A stretch of 64,000 bases of DNA from Cyanosarcina radialis HA8281-LM2 (GTDB lineage Bacteria; Cyanobacteriota; Cyanobacteriia; Cyanobacteriales; CCAP-1448). Each line of letters opens with the position of its first letter. Within the stretch, counting starts at the first letter, position 1. This document shows positions 2,239 to 56,890 of this stretch, piece after piece. The stretch is taken from contig JAHHHA010000001.1 of NCBI GenBank assembly GCA_019359615.1, positions 248,001 to 312,000 on the forward strand, in the 5' to 3' direction. The position numbers and the translations under genes are program-made. The notes under the pieces were generated by a model. The model worked only from the letters and a program-made list of their open reading frames with translations. It was not told the DNA's origin and searched no databases.

Positions 2239-3528
2239 CTAGCTACTACGCTGAGCTAGAAGTTTGTGACGTTTCTTTGCCCCAAGTTGCCTCATACTTC
2301 CGCACGAGGTAGAGCTTGACGACTCCACGCCTGTAGAGGTTCGTTCCAAACCCCTCGCCCAAATCAAATTAACTTGGGCAGCATTAACGTCTCTGTCTTC
2401 GATATGTCCGCAGTGTTGACAAATATGCACTCTGTCGGCCAAAGTTTTGGGCGTTAATTCCCAACATTTGGCGCATCTTTGAGTTGGCTTGAGAGTAGGA
2501 GTTGGAGACTCTACATAAAAACCTCCAGCCTCAGCTAACTTATACTCAAGCATTTGGGAGATCGTGCCAAAAGCAACATCAAGCATGGAACGGTTAAGTC
2601 CTGCTTTTTGCCGTTTTTGTTGCTTGGTGCGGCGACATGGCGAGGAAACCTCGCCGTCGGCGCTCCGCTTTTTGCCCTTGCGGGTCATACCTTTGACATT
2701 GAGCTTTTCTCCAGCCACTAGGCTATTACCGCTAACTATGTGGCTGGTGATTTGATGTAGCCAGTTTTCTCGCTGACGAGCTACCTTTCGCTGTAATTGA
2801 GAAACTCTAGCCCTGGCTTTTTTCCAACGACGCGAAGGCTTAATTTTCTTTTGCCGATTGGGAGCGCGTTTCCGCCTCAGTTTTTTAGAGGCAGATTTGA
2901 CTTTCTGTTGCCCAATCTGAATGAAATCTGGTTTGGAAATTTGTTCTCCTGTGGAAAAGGTTATCGCTTCCTTGCATCCTAAATCGATCCCAACTGCCCC
3001 ATTACCCGTCAAACGTTCTGGCGTGCAGTTGACGGTAATTGAGGCATACCATTTACCATGCCGAAAAATCATGGTGCAAGTGGTGGGTGTTCCCCAAGTT
3101 CTAGCTTGGCCTCGCATCTGGATACTGCCCAAATTAGATAGCTCCAAATAGCCGTTATTCCCTGTCGTCTGTACTTTCCAGCCAGCATTACATGGATACG
3201 TCCAACCGCTATATCGACGCGATGCTTTAAATTTTGGGTAGCCTCCCAATCCTTTAAAAAAGCGGTTGAACGCTAAATCAACTCGCTTGAGTGTCGATTG
3301 CAAGGCATGAGATCCCAAAGGTTTATATTCGGGCCATACTTCTTTAAAACTTGGCAAGCAGTTTTGCTGCTCCAAATAATTAACTGCATGACCGAATTTC
3401 TGATACTGAGTTTTACGGTTGTAGACTGCCGCGTTGTACAACAAACAATGAAGCTTGCGCCAATAGTGTAGAGTGTTTTGCTGTAGCTTTGTTGGATAAA
3501 GTTTAAAAGTAACGCGGCGTGTTATCAT
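2239..3528 (-). CDS. tnpB: TnpB-family RNA-guided nuclease (IS200/IS605 or IS607 type)
   Basis: 429 aa. The RuvC-like core is complete: GIDLG with Asp near residue 178 (RuvC-I), VAGEKLNVKGM with Glu (RuvC-II) and DRDVNAA with Asp (RuvC-III), with a zinc finger CAKC...CQHC before the last motif. The N-terminal helix-turn-helix begins MITRRVTFKLYPTKLQQ. TnpB is an RNA-guided DNA nuclease of IS200/IS605 and IS607 elements. Its guide RNA normally overlaps the 3' end of its own gene, here near 2200-2350. No TnpA transposase gene is nearby, so this is an orphan. Between RuvC-II and RuvC-III the frame runs through a dispersed palindromic repeat (2621-2668) that adds about 16 residues not expected in the family. 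A small ribbon-helix-helix-like gene starts 30 bp away in the opposite direction. Confidence 0.93.
   Translation of the reverse strand: MITRRVTFKLYPTKLQQNTLHYWRKLHCLLYNAAVYNRKTQYQKFGHAVNYLEQQNCLPSFKEVWPEYKPLGSHALQSTLKRVDLAFNRFFKGLGGYPKFKASRRYSGWTYPCNAGWKVQTTGNNGYLELSNLGSIQMRGQARTWGTPTTCTMIFRHGKWYASITVNCTPERLTGNGAVGIDLGCKEAITFSTGEQISKPDFIQIGQQKVKSASKKLRRKRAPNRQKKIKPSRRWKKARARVSQLQRKVARQRENWLHQITSHIVSGNSLVAGEKLNVKGMTRKGKKRSADGEVSSPCRRTKQQKRQKAGLNRSMLDVAFGTISQMLEYKLAEAGGFYVESPTPTLKPTQRCAKCWELTPKTLADRVHICQHCGHIEDRDVNAAQVNLIWARGLERTSTGVESSSSTSCGSMRQLGAKKRHKLLAQRSS
2240..2258. other. hairpin at the tnpB 3' end
   Basis: Inverted repeat TAGCT-9 nt-AGCTA overlapping the tnpB stop codon. In IS200/IS605 elements the right-end hairpin and the 3' end of the omega-RNA scaffold lie here. 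The stem is short, so this assignment is tentative. Confidence 0.3.
2621..2668. repeat. dispersed palindromic repeat inside tnpB, copy 1
   Basis: Contains TGCTTGGTGC, then the palindrome GGCGAGGAAACCTCGCC (2639-2655), then a GC-rich tail. The same order is found on the minus strand at 27441-27493 and on the plus strand at 56800-56849. Here it is translated in frame within TnpB. Confidence 0.75.
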
Positions 3529-24365: not shown

Positions 24366-24893
24366 GTGCCCTCACCCCCTTCGGCAGAGCTTCAGGGCAG
24401 CGCCCAACCCCTCTCCCAGCTTGGGCTACCGTGTATACATAAGTCTTTAAGGCTCGCAATACTTGGGAAAGCCCTCATCCCCCAGCCCCTTCTCCCCAGG
24501 GAGAAGGGGACCCGGAGTCAAACTAGTTCGGGCATTAGCCGCCAAGAAGTTTCAATGCTAATTGAGGCGGTTAAAGTCCCTCTCCCGACTCCCTCCTTAC
24601 CAAGGGGGGACACAGGGGGGGGTAGGAGAGGGATTTAGGGTGAGGGCGAGATGTGTATACGCGCCAGCTTGCACCAAGCAGGGGGAAGTTCTCAAAGTCC
24701 CCCTTTTTAAGGGGGATTTAGGGGGATCTACAACGTCCAACTTCAGACCGATAACTTATGTATACACGGTAGCCTTTAGCCTTGTAGGAGAGGGCTTCTT
24801 TGAGGTGGGAGAGAGGTGTCGAAAGCGGGGTGTAGACGCGCAGCGGCTTCCGGCAGGGTGGGCAAACCAACTTTTGCTAAGCGGATTTAATAT
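24366..24893. repeat. composite dispersed repeat, copy B, with nested insertion
   Basis: Same modules and order as 9823-10150, ending in TTTGCTAAGCGGATTTAATA. It is longer because about 98 bp (24661-24758) lie between two TGTATAC heptamers (24654-24660 and 24759-24765), where copy A has a single TGTATAC (10064-10070). The inserted part is itself a dispersed repeat found inverted at 56746-56817. No gene is seen from 24212 to 24903. Confidence 0.85.
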
Positions 24894-24903
24894 CACTAAG
24901 AGT

Positions 24904-27900
24904 TTAAAGAAGTTCAGGATTATTCTGAACTCCTGCATTCTTCTCGATCGATGCCCCCAAAGATTGCAAGGTCAAAATCGTGGCCTCAGTTAATCCTTTG
25001 ACTCTAGTAATATTCATCCCCTCGTAGGGTCTTTTCGCCCGCAACGTCTCGATCGATTTACCTGTTTTGACATCCCACAGCCTGACGGTTTGGTCTTGAG
25101 AACCGCTAGCCACGACTTGGCCATCAGGACTGAAGGCGACAGAAGAGACTAAATGCGTATGTCCAAGGCCAACATGAAGGCATTGCCCAGTGCTGACATC
25201 CCAAAATCTGACGGTGCGATCGTGAGAGGCGCTAGCCAAGGTTTGTCCGTCAGGACTAAAAGCTAGGGCAAATACCCAATTAGTATGTCCGTTCAAGGTT
25301 TTGAGACATTCACCTGTCCTCCAATCCCAGAGTTTCACGGTTTTATCTGTGCTGCCAGTAGCGACGATCTGCCCATCGGGACTAAAGATAGCTGCATATA
25401 CCCGATTATCATGTCCGTGCAAGGTGCTGATGCAACTAGCTGTACGAACATCCCACAGTTTTACCGTACAGTCAGCACTGGCACTAGCTAAGGTTTGCCC
25501 ATCTGGACTCCAAGCAATTCCAAATATTTTATCGGTATGGGTGCTTAAGGTTTGCAGGCATTGACCCGTACTGAGATCCCATAGCTTTAACGTACAGTCG
25601 GCACTACCGCTGGCCAGGATTTTACCTTGGGGATGAAAGGCGACACTGTATACCCAATCGGTATGTCCGAGCAAAATTTGGCAACATTGACCGAAACAAT
25701 TGTCAATTCGCAATTCGCAATAGATGCCTCCGGCACGCTGCGCGAACGCAATTGTTAATTCGGAATTGGTTTGGCTTGTACCAACATTCCACAACCTAAT
25801 TGAAGAATCCGTACTGGCGCTGGCTAAGATTTGTCCATCTGAACTAAAGGCAATGCCATAAATAAAGTCTGTATGTCCTGCCAAGCTTTTCAGGCAACTG
25901 CCGCTTTGCCAATCCCATAGCTTTACGGTTTTGTCGTTGCTGCCACTGGCTAAGATCCCCCCTAGCCCTACTCGAGCCGAAATCTGGTTTGCATAACCTG
26001 GTTTGCCCTCACCCCCTTCCCCTCTCCCAAGCTTGGGAGAGGGGTGTCCGCCAGGACGGTGTGAGGGCAGAGTTTCGGGGTCGATGGAACCGGATTCGAT
26101 CGGATCGGGGAAGGGGTTTGGCAGGATCGGACTAAAAGCGACGGGAAATGCCCAATCGGTATTGCCATACCAAGTTTTCCAGCACTGACCAGTGTGAGAG
26201 TCCCACAGCCTGACGCTTTGATCTAAACTGACGCATACTAGCGTGCGATCGTCTGGACTAAAAGCAACGGCACAAACTTCATTGGTATGACCGTGTAAAG
26301 TTCTAATACAGGTATCGGTTTGACAATCCCAAATTTTCACGGTGCGATCGCCACTGCCGCTAACCAGAATTTGACCGTCGGGACTATAGGCGATCGAGTA
26401 GACGCTGTTAGTATGTCCGCTATAAGTTTTCAGGCATTCTCCGGTACGATAGTTCCAGATTTTGATGGTGCGATCGCTACTGCTGCTAGCAAGGGTTTCC
26501 CCGTCGGGACTAAAGGCGATCGATCGCACCCAGCCTGTATGGGCGTTTAAAGTTCTCTGACACTTACCCTGACGGACATCCCACAGTTTAATTGCACCAT
26601 CAGCACTACTGCTGGCCAAGGTTTGCCCGTCGGGACTAAAAGCGACGCTGCGTACCCAATCTGTATGTCCTGTAAGGGTTTGGCAGCATTTACCATCGTT
26701 AATATCCCACAGTTTAACGGTGCGATCGCCGCTGGCACTAGCCAAGATCCCCCCTATGCCCCCCTGATTCAGAAGGGTTGAGGGGAGCGGATGAAACGCT
26801 AAAGCAAATACCTCATGTCCGTGCCCGGTTAAGGTTTTGATGCAAACACCATCTCGGACGTTCCAAAGTTTAATCTTCTCATCAGCGCCGCAACTGGCCA
26901 GAATTTGACCGTTGGGACTGAAAGCTACAAAGCGCACCCAATTAGTATGCCCTTGACAAATTAGCAATAATTTCCCTGTTTTCACCTCCCACACCCGGAT
27001 CTGGCAATCGGTGTCGCAGGTAGCTAAAAGCTGACCGTCTGGGCTAAAAGCGGCCGATAAAATATTACCTAACGTCTCAGTAAAGACACAGCGAGATAAA
27101 TCTGAATCAGTAAAATCGACATCATGCAAGTTTACGCCCTGAAGATAAGCTTGCCAAACAGTTAAACCGGAAAAATCATAACCGCTGAGGTCAACTTCTG
27201 CTTGATACAGCAAATTCAGCACATTTCCGGCAGCGTAACCAGTTTCTTGGGGCGATCTTCCTCGCAGGCTGGCAAGGATTTGAGTCAGACGACGAGCGAT
27301 ATGTTCTCGACTGCCAAGTTCTGTAATTAATTTATCGATAACGGGCTGAAGAATCAGATTGATTTGAGTTTCTCGCACGTAGTCTTTGGCTTGGGCTTTA
27401 ATGAGGGCATGACTGGTAAATATTTTGGATTTTGGATTTTGCGGATGCGGGTCGCGGCGAGGTTTCCTCGCCATGCAGACCGCACCAAGCAGGATTTTGG
27501 ATTGTTTTTCTATTACCCAGTCAATAATTTCTTCAGTAACTCGATCGATTAAGCGATCGCTGACATACTCCATCACTACGGGCTGTTGAGTAAAACCGCC
27601 AGGACTTTTTTCGATTAGGGAACGCATTTGCAAAGAAGTCAGCGCCTCTAGCAATCCATGAGGTGGGATACGAGCCACGAAATCTGCTTGTAAGTCTGAC
27701 AATGAGACTATTTCGCGCTCGATCGCCAGCCAGTACATAATTTCTTGTTCTAAAACTGTGAGGCGATCGAATTGTTGGTCGAGCAGATCGCGAATATCAT
27801 CGAATAACCATACCCCCTGCCGAGAAATTTCTAGAAATTGGGAAACATCACCCTCAAAAAAATCTCGAATTGAAGACGCTACAATTTTGAGAGCTAAAGG

Positions 27901-28887
27901 GTTGCCGCCATAGCGTGAAATTAAAAGTTGCCATTGGTTTTCGTCGGCTGTGAATTGACCTTTAACATTAAATAATTCCCGCCCTTCTGGTTCTAGTAAA
28001 CCCGTAAGTTGTAAAGAACGCACGGGCAAACTATCCCCTTCATACTTCGCCAATCCTTGAGGTTTTTCTCGCGAAGTGAGAATCAAACAACTTTGATGCG
28101 AGGTTTCTGCCACGCAGCGAAAAAGTTCGCCATAGCCCTCAAATCCAACTCGATAGCGACCAGGGCGTTGGCGATCGCCTGCCGTTAGGGATTCGCCTGG
28201 TTGTAAAATCGACTCGGCATTATCGAGAATTATCAGACAACGCGACGAACGTAAATATTTAAGTAACAGCAAGATTCTGGCATCTAACCGCTCTGGTAAA
28301 TTCGTTTCTTGCTGTTTAGATAAAAATTGAATTAACTCAGCTAATATATCTGCGATCGCTGGAGCCTGACGCAAACTCCGCCAAATAATATATTGCAGAG
28401 GCATTTGATGAACTTGCTCTACAATTTGTCGTGCTACCTTAACCGCCAGCGTAGTTTTGCCAATACCGCCCATGCCTAACAAAGCAATCAGGCGGCAATT
28501 TTCCTCTACAATCCATCGCCGGACAATTTCTATTTCTTCATTTCGACCATAAAAAATAGATACGTCAGGTGCTTCTCCCCAATCTTGGCAAGGATGAGGT
28601 GAATTGCTTTTATTATCCTTTCGATCGACAACTTCTTCCCAATTCAGCCCAAGTATGTGGCAGTAGGTCTTAAACGCTTCAGCGTTAATCGCTTGCTTTC
28701 CAGCTAGGAAACGTTTCCAAGTTCCCTCGGAAATCCCCACAGCCAGAACTCCACGATCTTCCCAACAGATGCCTAAAATCTCGCTGGCTAATTCTATCCA
28801 TCTAAAATCATCGACAGGCCAACCCTTCTGGCTTCTAGCTTGTTTGATTCTTAAGAGTCCTTCTGGAGAAGCTTTGAGCGTAGCCAC
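24904..28887 (-). CDS. NB-ARC / 14-blade WD40 protein (STAND NTPase)
   Basis: 1327 aa, GTG start. The N-terminal region (about 1-95) is HTH-like ([14 protein letters not shown]...). NB-ARC follows at about 105-480 with Walker [12 protein letters not shown] and Walker [12 protein letters not shown] short pentapeptide-like segment (near 575-610) precedes 14 WD40 repeats, two propellers' worth. This is the architecture of STAND signalling NTPases, where ligand binding by the repeats releases the NTPase to oligomerise. No effector domain is evident. Four dispersed repeats lie within the frame (25690-25778, 25954-26127, 26745-26790, 27423-27502) and add residues between or within blades and in the helical region, yet the frame is intact. 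Confidence 0.92.
25690..25778. repeat. dispersed repeat inside WD40 gene (blade 9)
   Basis: CAATTGTCAATTCGCAATTC on one side and GCAATTGTTAATTCGGAATT on the other flank GCCTCCGGCACGCTGCGCGA. The translated extra segment contains [20 protein letters not shown]. Confidence 0.75.
25954..26127. repeat. dispersed repeat inside WD40 gene (blade 8)
   Basis: Begins AAGATCCCCCCTAGCCC and contains CCCTCACCCCC, CCTCTCCCAAGCTTGGGAGA and GTGTGAGGGC, parts of the composite repeat at 9823 and 24366. It encodes about 55 extra residues between FSP and GGILASGS. Confidence 0.85.
26745..26790. repeat. dispersed repeat inside WD40 gene (blade 3)
   Basis: Starts with the same GATCCCCCCTA as the repeat at 25954 and carries CCCCCCTGATTC...AGGGTTGAGGGG. 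It adds about 13 residues between AFHPL and GGILASAS. Confidence 0.75.
27441..27493. repeat. dispersed palindromic repeat inside WD40 gene, copy 2
   Basis: Minus-strand copy of the repeat with TGCTTGGTGC and the palindrome GGCGAGG-AAA-CCTCGCC (27456-27472 on plus reads with TTT). It is flanked by TTTTGGA heptamers on both sides (27423-27440, 27492-27502). Confidence 0.8.
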
Positions 28888-52999: not shown

Positions 53000-53320
53000 C
53001 GGGAAATAACGCTGAGATTTGCATCTATTGTGCCCAATTTCCCTTGAAATTAATAGCAGTTGTCTAGCACCTGGGTGCAGCAGTGGGGTAATTAGATGTA
53101 CGTTCCTGGCAGTGCAAGTGCTGGGGCACCAAGCATGACGGCGACGTGAATGCGGCGATCGCACCACTGGGCAAAGGTTTGATATTCTCTAGCCGATTGC
53201 GATCGCTTCTTGAAAATCATGGGAGTCAGGCGATCGTGTATAACTGCAAGTACAAAAGATCGTGTTAAGAGAACAATAACCATCCCACCGACCATCTTGA
53301 GGCACTGTTAAAATACGCTT
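53000..53320. other. non-coding stretch upstream of two divergent units
   Basis: No accepted gene. A minus-strand frame (53092-53295) reads like a short unrelated fragment (REYQTFAQWCDRR) without a family. The promoter of the kinase remnant and that of the gene at 53321 must lie here. Confidence 0.4.
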
Positions 53321-56492: not shown

Positions 56493-56745
56493 AATTCCCC
56501 AACCTTCTACCAGAAGCGAGCCATACACTTCTATGGTTCCCCAAAAGCGATCGCTTGTAACTACAATTGCAAAAGTTTTATGGGAAAAATAACGTCTCGA
56601 ACGATCGGTTGCAAGCAGTCAAACAAATTCCTAAGATCTATCGTTAGTTGTCTCCGATCGAACTGTGATGTAGTTAGTAAAGCGAAACTTCTACATTATT
56701 TGCTAAGAGGATGTCTGAGAAGTCTTTTTGGCTACGTTTGCAGCT

Positions 56746-56890
56746 TGTAGATCCCCCTAAATCCCCCTTAAAAAGGGGGACTTTGAAGCTGTTCCCCCCT
56801 GCTTGGTGCAAGCTGTATGGCGAGGTTTCCTCGCCACGCTTGCATCCGCTTTTTAAGGGGGGGGCTAGGGGGGAGAGCGCAAAGCGCACG
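56746..56890. repeat. composite dispersed repeat
   Basis: The first part (56746-56817) is the reverse complement of 24663-24733 (CAGCTTGCACCAAGCAGGGG...CCCCCTTTTTAAGGGGGA...GGATCTACAA). The second part is the GGCGAGGTTTCCTCGCC palindrome repeat, copy 3 (56800-56849), then CTTTTTAAGGGGGGGCTAGG. No gene in 56529-56951. Confidence 0.85.

What the first reader, a model, noticed from the sequence alone, without database searches (positions are those of the whole stretch)
2621..2668. A palindrome-bearing dispersed repeat is translated inside TnpB and recurs inside a WD40 gene
TGCTTGGTGC followed by the palindrome GGCGAGG-NNN-CCTCGCC occurs at 2621-2668, 27441-27493 (inverted) and 56800-56849. Two copies sit in coding sequence in frame, adding about 16 residues between RuvC-II and RuvC-III of TnpB and a segment in the NB-ARC/WD40 protein. 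In-frame palindromic elements inside proteins are described for Rickettsia. A counterpart in cyanobacteria with several target genes would be notable.
Basis: partly seen in the sequence, partly recalled or inferred. Interest (0 to 1): 0.75.

Follow-up and report, generated by a model that had tools for sequence, protein, structure and literature searches.

The report
Gene-tolerant hairpin repeat in cyanobacteria
A 48-51 base hairpin-shaped DNA repeat spreads through several cyanobacterial genomes and often lands inside genes, mostly those of other mobile elements, where it adds 16-17 amino acids without breaking the reading frame.

Summary
All three copies are real, and the window's own genome has 66. 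The unit is TGCTTGGTGC, a variable stem-loop, then GCATCCGC; 48, 50 and 51 nt are commonest. Its stems covary strongly. It begins with T, ends with C, and sits mostly between C and T or A. Copies are single or abut head to tail. Exact ends, nested insertions and one same-genome pair of sites (48 nt present or absent, no target duplication) show a mobile hairpin element. In frame, it adds 16-17 residues to the window TnpB and NB-ARC-like/WD40 proteins, a methyltransferase, an alpha-mannosidase and a tocopherol cyclase. In relatives it lies in many TnpB genes, IS5 transposases and a group II intron reverse transcriptase. Most aligned homologues lack the segment; three TnpB lineages carry it at one linker, apparently gained separately. 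The best mechanism is single-strand transposition in trans by a Y1/HUH enzyme, as proposed for REPs. The enzyme was not found, and the GTAG/CGTC tag of REPs is absent. It works like REP and Rickettsia palindromic elements but is not shown to belong to either. In-frame palindromes were already known; this is a new variant.

The parts
2621..2668 (+). Element copy 1, 48 nt, antisense to and in frame within tnpB; encodes residues 287-303 ([17 protein letters not shown])
2239..3528 (-). tnpB gene (RNA-guided endonuclease TnpB family) that carries copy 1; acidic residues D182, E274, D378/D380 and zinc-finger-like CxxC pairs are present
   Evidence: Pfam PF01385 and PF07282, NCBIfam NF040570 245 bits against cut-off 100, positions
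27441..27491 (-). Element copy 2, 51 nt, in frame within the P-loop/WD40 gene, nested in an AAAATCC heptamer array
24904..28887 (-). NB-ARC-like P-loop / WD40 protein gene that carries copy 2
   Evidence: WD40 families; [10 protein letters not shown]-loop seen in the translation; NB-ARC itself not listed among the 25 families shown
56800..56849 (+). Element copy 3, 50 nt, between ORFs, nested in another palindromic repeat at CCCCC^TTTTTAAGGGG
24664..24680 (-). Remnant of an element (TGCTTGGTGCAAGCTGG) cut off by another repeat, beside a host repeat like the one that holds copy 3

Best explanation
It is a non-autonomous mobile DNA hairpin of about 46-53 nt (mostly 48, 50 or 51). Shown by sequence: a 5' tail TGCTT, an outer stem GGTGC/GCATCC with a one-base bulge, an inner stem-loop whose sequence varies but whose pairing is kept, a GC tail, and junctions C^T...C^T or C^A, without target duplication at the one site where empty and filled forms could be compared in one genome. 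Inferred: a Y1/HUH single-strand transposase of the IS200/IS605 or TnpA_REP kind, acting in trans, recognises the folded single strand, cuts at CT/CA dinucleotides on both sides and joins the unit into other C^TTTT or C^AAAA sites. Such sites occur in heptamer arrays, in the CCCCTTTTTAAGGGG repeat, and in lysine-rich linkers of TnpB. Copies that land in a protein linker and keep the frame survive because the unit has few stop codons and linkers tolerate 16-17 extra residues. Landing in IS genes lets the unit be copied and carried along with the IS.
For: 66 own copies with a uniform boundary: base before is C in 62 of 66, first base T in 65, last base C in 66, next base T in 57 and A in 3. 61 copies elsewhere: C before in 46, T or A after in 59. 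Covariation: 96.1% of cells paired; score 0.491 against 0.127 in shuffles and at most 0.104 when slid. Single-strand DNA folding z-score -3.1 or lower in 7 of 8. Same-genome filled and empty sites: L064 and L068 against L066, 48 nt, no duplication (a sister family with the same C^T junctions). Clean 17-residue gaps in homologues of Okeania TnpBs. 16 of 66 own units are followed directly by another unit start. Carriers of the segment at one TnpB linker need three changes on a tree, at least two forced by well-supported branches. TnpA_REP cuts at CT, and in one species also CA, 5' or 3' of a hairpin (PMC8266576, passages). Stop-poor: 42 of 98 distinct copies open in all six frames against 18% for core shuffles and 23% for GC-matched own-genome windows.
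Against: No Y1 gene was found flanked by this hairpin as in a REPtron. Of 35 Y1 loci (5 own, 30 from five relatives) the model marks 4: three are copies inside a neighbouring tnpB (L233, L235, L249), and one is a sister-family unit about 0.7 kb upstream of a Y1 gene in G045 (L247), on one side only. Two own Y1 genes (L197, L198) are flanked by another hairpin. The GTAG/CGTC foot of REPs is absent. Three 49-nt copies lie in open IS5-type ORFs, so unit length alone does not decide the frame. In G024 nearly all copies outside ORFs also have 3n lengths, so length there is not evidence of selection in genes. One of 8 copies does not fold better than shuffles. No movement was observed, only its outcome.
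Confidence: 0.6

Rival explanations
1. The unit is a folded-strand substrate of another recombinase (integron-type tyrosine recombinase acting on one strand), or is inserted through RNA and reverse transcription (a group II intron RT gene is itself a target).
For: Structure is kept while inner sequence varies, which any structure-reading enzyme would give. A group II intron RT with two units exists in G024.
Against: The CT/CA junctions fit TnpA_REP. Partner recombinases or RTs were not searched for, so this is weak evidence against.
Confidence: 0.15
2. No transposition: copies are spread by gene conversion and template switching between existing repeats and IS copies.
For: About half of the own copies sit in the same kind of host repeat (34 of 66 preceded by CCC). 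Several TnpB copies in G024 are one IS multiplied.
Against: Units lie with exact ends in unrelated sequence: heptamers, TnpB linkers, IS5, RT, methyltransferase. The empty site L066 has no trace of a unit. The same TnpB linker holds units with different cores in three lineages.
Confidence: 0.12
3. The segment was kept because it does something for TnpB or its mRNA, for example as a regulatory hairpin or an RNA-binding basic loop.
For: Repeated occupation of the same linkers in TnpB: the window site in 3 lineages, and sites at or within a few residues of G(F/Y)P in G011, Chamaesiphon, G342 and G024. The encoded residues are often basic.
Against: Most homologues lack it. Unrelated proteins carry it too. 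Encoded residues change with orientation and frame. Target sites read AAAAG in the gene are about four times denser in TnpB (4.7 against 1.2 per kb).
Confidence: 0.1

Closest known systems
REP elements / REPINs with TnpA_REP (RAYT)
   Same: Short hairpin, bulged stem in some, high copy, sub-families with complementary stem changes, CT/CA at the junctions, intragenic copies known (PMC3733652, PMC8266576, PMC3116915, passages read)
   Different: 5' foot is TGCTT, not GTAG, GTGG or CGTC; single or head-to-tail, not close inverted pairs; no RAYT flanked by it in the loci checked; inner hairpin far more variable than the ends
Rickettsia palindromic elements (RPE)
   Same: Palindromic, dispersed, in frame inside ORFs of unrelated proteins (described in PMC10969869 and PMC3733652, passages read; the original papers were not read, one of them looked up and not held)
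   Different: About 50 nt against the ~150 bp given for RPEs in PMC10969869; cyanobacteria; many hosts are mobile-element genes; a same-genome empty site is in hand. Sequence homology to RPEs was not tested
Small dispersed repeats (SDR) of Nostoc, Elhai et al. 2008
   Same: Very small, dispersed, possibly mobile repeats (cited in PMC2884548, passage read; paper not held)
   Different: SDRs are about 20 bp by that citation; this unit is mostly 48-51 nt with a two-part stem. Sequences were not compared
REP insertions inside tnpA_REP genes of Y1 subclass 2.4 (PMC6006769, passages read)
   Same: Hairpins inside genes of transposition proteins, in a subclass abundant in Cyanobacteria
   Different: Those lie in tnpA_REP genes and that subclass has canonical long or double-foot REPs; here the hosts are tnpB, IS5, intron RT and cellular genes

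Membership tests
REP (GTAG- or CGTC-tagged) | GTAG/GTGG or CGTC tetranucleotide at the foot of the hairpin | tested here: not met
   Tails TGCTT and GC are invariant in the 35 distinct copies of A1; that set was chosen by those ends or close to them
REP (GTAG- or CGTC-tagged) | Short stem-loop kept by complementary changes | tested here: met
REP (GTAG- or CGTC-tagged) | Cognate RAYT gene flanked by copies | tested here: not met
   35 Y1 loci (5 own, 30 of the 43 matches in five relatives) searched with the model at E <= 0.1: 4 hits, 3 inside adjacent tnpB genes and 1 sister-family unit about 0.7 kb to one side
REPIN / BIME | Inverted pairs of units | tested here: not met
   Among 66 own copies 13 neighbouring pairs abut, all in the same orientation; the closest inverted pair is 569 nt apart
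MITE | Terminal inverted repeats and target duplication | tested here: not met
   Ends TGCTTGGTGC / GCATCCGC are not inverted repeats over their whole length; no duplication at the L064/L066 site
Rickettsia palindromic element | Palindromic repeat in frame inside ORFs | tested here: met
Rickettsia palindromic element | Sequence homology to an RPE family | not tested
   No RPE sequence was fetched or compared
IS200/IS605 ends | Cut by a Y1/HUH transposase at hairpin-guided sites | not testable with these tools
   needs a cleavage assay

The most novel reading that the evidence does not exclude
A hairpin element adapted to live inside genes: mostly 3n in length, poor in stop codons in all six frames, entering lysine-rich linkers, and travelling in the coding sequences of other mobile elements (TnpB, IS5, group II intron RT) so that those elements spread it without being broken.
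Probability: 0.4. Interest if true: 0.75.

Novelty: new variant of a known kind. Interest (0 to 1): 0.58.

Why it matters
It shows protein linkers, above all those of RNA-guided nucleases (TnpB), being filled repeatedly by one small mobile hairpin, with matched empty and filled genes for comparison. That makes two questions testable: how REP-like and RPE-like hairpins move, and whether proteins grow by absorbing such units. The natural TnpB pairs with and without the insert mark places where TnpB may accept extra residues.

Tried and rejected
Cognate enzyme: PF01797 in the own genome (5 loci) and in five carrier relatives (43 matches, 30 loci) gave no gene flanked by this hairpin; the model on those 35 loci gave 4 hits, described under evidence against. 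tblastn with two own Y1 proteins against 26 cyanobacterial loci found one Y1 gene, in L149, beside a tnpB and about 3.9 kb from a copy; a weak model hit (E 0.004) lies at the 3' end of that tnpB and was not followed. Viral contigs: no relative of the window TnpB. Rfam: 0 matches at E <= 0.1 in 6 loci. Structure: AlphaFold2 of the window TnpB with 5 distant homologues was poor (pLDDT 54, pTM 0.39); residues 276-317 are low-confidence, mostly coil, which fits a loop but proves nothing; no fold search was made on it. Length as proof of selection: 20 of 21 TnpB-embedded copies outside the own genome are 3n against 22 of 40 others (Fisher p = 0.001), but copies are related and in G024 nearly all copies outside ORFs are 3n too, so I treat it as weak; in the own genome 4 of 4 coding copies against 32 of 61 others is p = 0.12 (truncated L280 copy left out). 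Phylum sample: 4 of 386 genomes including the own one; of the other three, G354 looks like chance. Literature: seven searches on this theme; none of the papers listed describes this element by title or abstract, but lists are capped (by letters: 178 papers, 20 listed) and subscription papers are not held, so absence from print is not shown. Another search found the TnpA_REP papers. 'Categorically new' was rejected because intragenic REPs and RPEs are in print.

Full report
OBSERVATION. The unit is TGCTTGGTGC, then 30-33 nt in the commonest forms, then GCATCCGC. The own genome holds 49 copies with exact ends and none in the reversed control, and 66 at E <= 0.1 with a covariance model built from 35 distinct copies (150 of 1414 candidates scored). 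The window is cyanobacterial in character (84 HIP1 sites GCGATCGC; the HIP1 link is in PMC4390886, abstract start seen), and named carriers are Okeania, Crocosphaera, Xenococcus and Chamaesiphon (record titles; copies).

ANATOMY. In 35 distinct copies from several genomes the outer ends are constant but for one base missing in 2, while the inner arms change together: 96.1% of cells are standard pairs, all 7 inner pairs show double changes, and the covariation score is 0.491 against 0.127 (sd 0.016) in shuffles and at most 0.104 when slid. As single-stranded DNA, 7 of 8 tested copies fold with z of -3.1 or lower; one Okeania-type copy does not (z -0.58). The outer stem is GGTGC/GCATCC with a bulged T. 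Own lengths: 48 nt 22, 50 nt 20, 51 nt 14, others 10.

ENDS AND MOVEMENT. Of 66 own copies, the base before is C in 62, the first base is T in 65, the last is C in 66, and the next is T in 57, C in 6 and A in 3. Outside the own genome, 61 of 72 model hits were tabulated (dropped: 3 repeats of the same places and 8 weak, partial or other-family hits): C before in 46, T in 11, G in 3, A in 1; next base T in 46, A in 13, C in 2. In 43 further G024/G049 copies: C before in 30, T in 10, G in 3; next base T in 30, A in 13. 16 of 66 own units are followed directly by another unit start; 13 neighbouring pairs of model hits abut, all in one orientation, and the nearest inverted pair is 569 nt apart. 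Units are nested in other repeats: CCCCC^TTTTTAAGGGG, TTTTGAC^TTTTGAC and AATCC^AAAATCC arrays. In genome G024, three tnpB copies of one IS lineage give a direct comparison: L064 and L068 carry a 48-nt sister-family unit at CCAGC^TTTTTCAGC, while L066 has the uninterrupted site; there is no target duplication. The L061 and L072 IS types also recur with their unit in place, so IS that carry the unit have multiplied.

INSIDE GENES, OWN GENOME. In frame: TnpB (48 nt), P-loop/WD40 protein (51), GH38 alpha-mannosidase L024 (51), Methyltransf_28/NDUFAF7-type enzyme L028 (51), and tocopherol cyclase L280 (a 3'-altered copy inside its host repeat). Homologues: 33 distinct WD40-protein homologues and 31 distinct methyltransferase homologues were aligned over the site (34 and 32 rows, one duplicate place each); none has the segment, and several have other low-complexity or repeat inserts there (L302, L361), so the sites are permissive linkers. 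The model run on the 69 loci concerned finds only the two own copies. The mannosidase and cyclase sites were not compared with homologues lacking the unit. For TnpB, 17 homologues of at least 43% identity cover the site: 14 lack it, L205 (G045) and L207 (G024) have family members with different cores, and L203 has a different repeat; an own paralogue, L287, lacks it. On a tree of 18 such TnpBs the three carriers need three changes, at least two forced by well-supported branches, and form one group in 0% of 200 bootstrap trees. One gain with losses is not excluded.

INSIDE GENES, OTHER GENOMES. Of 61 tabulated copies outside the own genome, 21 lie in tnpB (L205 and L207 were found by searching for TnpB and so are biased). 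Okeania TnpBs L085 and L156 have a clean 17-residue gap in homologues at HKK|VAD; a Crocosphaera TnpB, L180, also has the unit in this region. Okeania L122 has a 53-nt version at that site, shifting the frame to a stop. At or within a few residues of G(F/Y)P, TnpBs of G011, Chamaesiphon, G342 and three of G024 (two of them one IS) have units. For G024, 42 of the 45 model hits were read: 23 lie in frame in open ORFs. 18 of these are TnpB (three at the C-terminal tail), 3 IS5-type transposase, 1 a group II intron RT that holds a second, 3'-altered unit and still passes the NCBIfam cut-off (318 against 300 bits), and 1 an AAA ATPase (not every ORF was scanned, relatives of scanned ones were accepted by alignment). 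The other 19 were not assigned to a gene. Copies from one IS are not independent. A copy of 50 nt appears to cut short an ISL3 transposase in G049.

FRAME TOLERANCE. Of 98 distinct units, 42 are open in all six frames (43%), against 18% for core shuffles, 9% for whole shuffles and 23% for GC-matched own-genome windows; mean open frames 5.04 against 4.43 (sd 0.10) for core shuffles; 65 of 98 are 48 or 51 nt. The units are related, so these are descriptions and not tests of independent events. On the coding strand AAAAG sites are denser in 14 TnpB genes (4.7 per kb) than in 26 other window ORFs (1.2) or methyltransferase homologues (2.4), while CTTTT sites are not (0.9 against 1.5 and 1.8). This partly explains the preference for TnpB; tolerance and copying by the IS may explain the rest. 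Of the 14 intragenic placements first noted, 12 are antisense to the gene (my count), and so are the 12 in-frame copies of G024 newly read, as expected from AAAA^G target codons.

DISTRIBUTION. Exact ends: 5 of 59 relatives besides the own genome, three of them with single hits, and 3 of 385 others in a phylum sample, one of them chance-like. Model: 15 of 59 relatives at E <= 0.001, with 45 copies in G024 and 37 in G049, several others with one or two weak hits (100 candidates scored per genome, so counts are lower bounds). The one same-family genome in the sample, G001, has none. The spread is patchy.

MECHANISM. Shown: a defined hairpin unit, exact ends, insertion at C^T or C^A, no duplication at the one site compared directly, in-frame occupation of linkers. 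Inferred: mobilisation by a Y1/HUH single-strand transposase in trans. The cut sites match those measured for TnpA_REP (CT, and CA in Marinomonas; PMC8266576, passages), but no Y1 gene flanked by this hairpin was found. Translation is inferred from intact ORFs and domain matches; no RNA or protein data exist here.

COMPARISON. In-frame palindromic elements are known from Rickettsia, and intragenic GTAG/CGTC REPs from several species, with the suggestion that they sit in flexible linkers (PMC3733652 and PMC10969869, passages). REP insertions within tnpA_REP genes are known in a subclass abundant in Cyanobacteria (PMC6006769, passages). Here the foot is different, the units are not close inverted pairs, many hosts are tnpB and other mobile-element genes, and matched filled and empty genes exist. 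I therefore call it a new variant of a known kind, working like a REP or RPE without proof that it is one.

Noticed in passing
L064 1629-1676, L068 348-395, L247 750-798, L071 1815-1862: A sister hairpin family with ends TTCTTGCTCC...GGTGCGC and the same C^T junctions; the L064/L066 pair gives its empty site. The L247 copy overlaps the end of an ORF and lies about 0.7 kb from a Y1 gene.
   Followed up: partly
L214 3032-3080, L215 1229-1277: A third variant, TCTTGGTCA...TGACCGC, with a changed but still paired outer stem, near a TnpB gene.
   Followed up: no
L197 and L198 (own genome): Two Y1 transposase genes flanked on both sides by another hairpin family (GGGGTTGAAAACCCC and paired arms), a likely REPtron-like arrangement.
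   Followed up: no
window 24904-28887: The WD40 gene seems to hold further translated dispersed repeats between blades (for example [14 protein letters not shown]); the mannosidase L024 has LTPQPPSLQGKGE. Seen by eye.
   Followed up: no
window 24692-24740 and 56738-56786: The larger palindromic repeat (CCCCCTTTTTAAGGGGGATTTAGGGGGATC) that hosts many own copies is itself dispersed.
   Followed up: partly
window 53101-53160: A TnpB-like remnant (KHDGDVNAAIA, read by eye) on the + strand, overlapping a chance GCTTGGTGC match.
   Followed up: no
L274, G000:C28:180001-180098: An own copy interrupted by another repeat, so repeats nest in both directions.
   Followed up: no
L396:1363-3099 (G024): Group II intron reverse transcriptase with two translated units, still above the NCBIfam equivalog cut-off.
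   Followed up: partly
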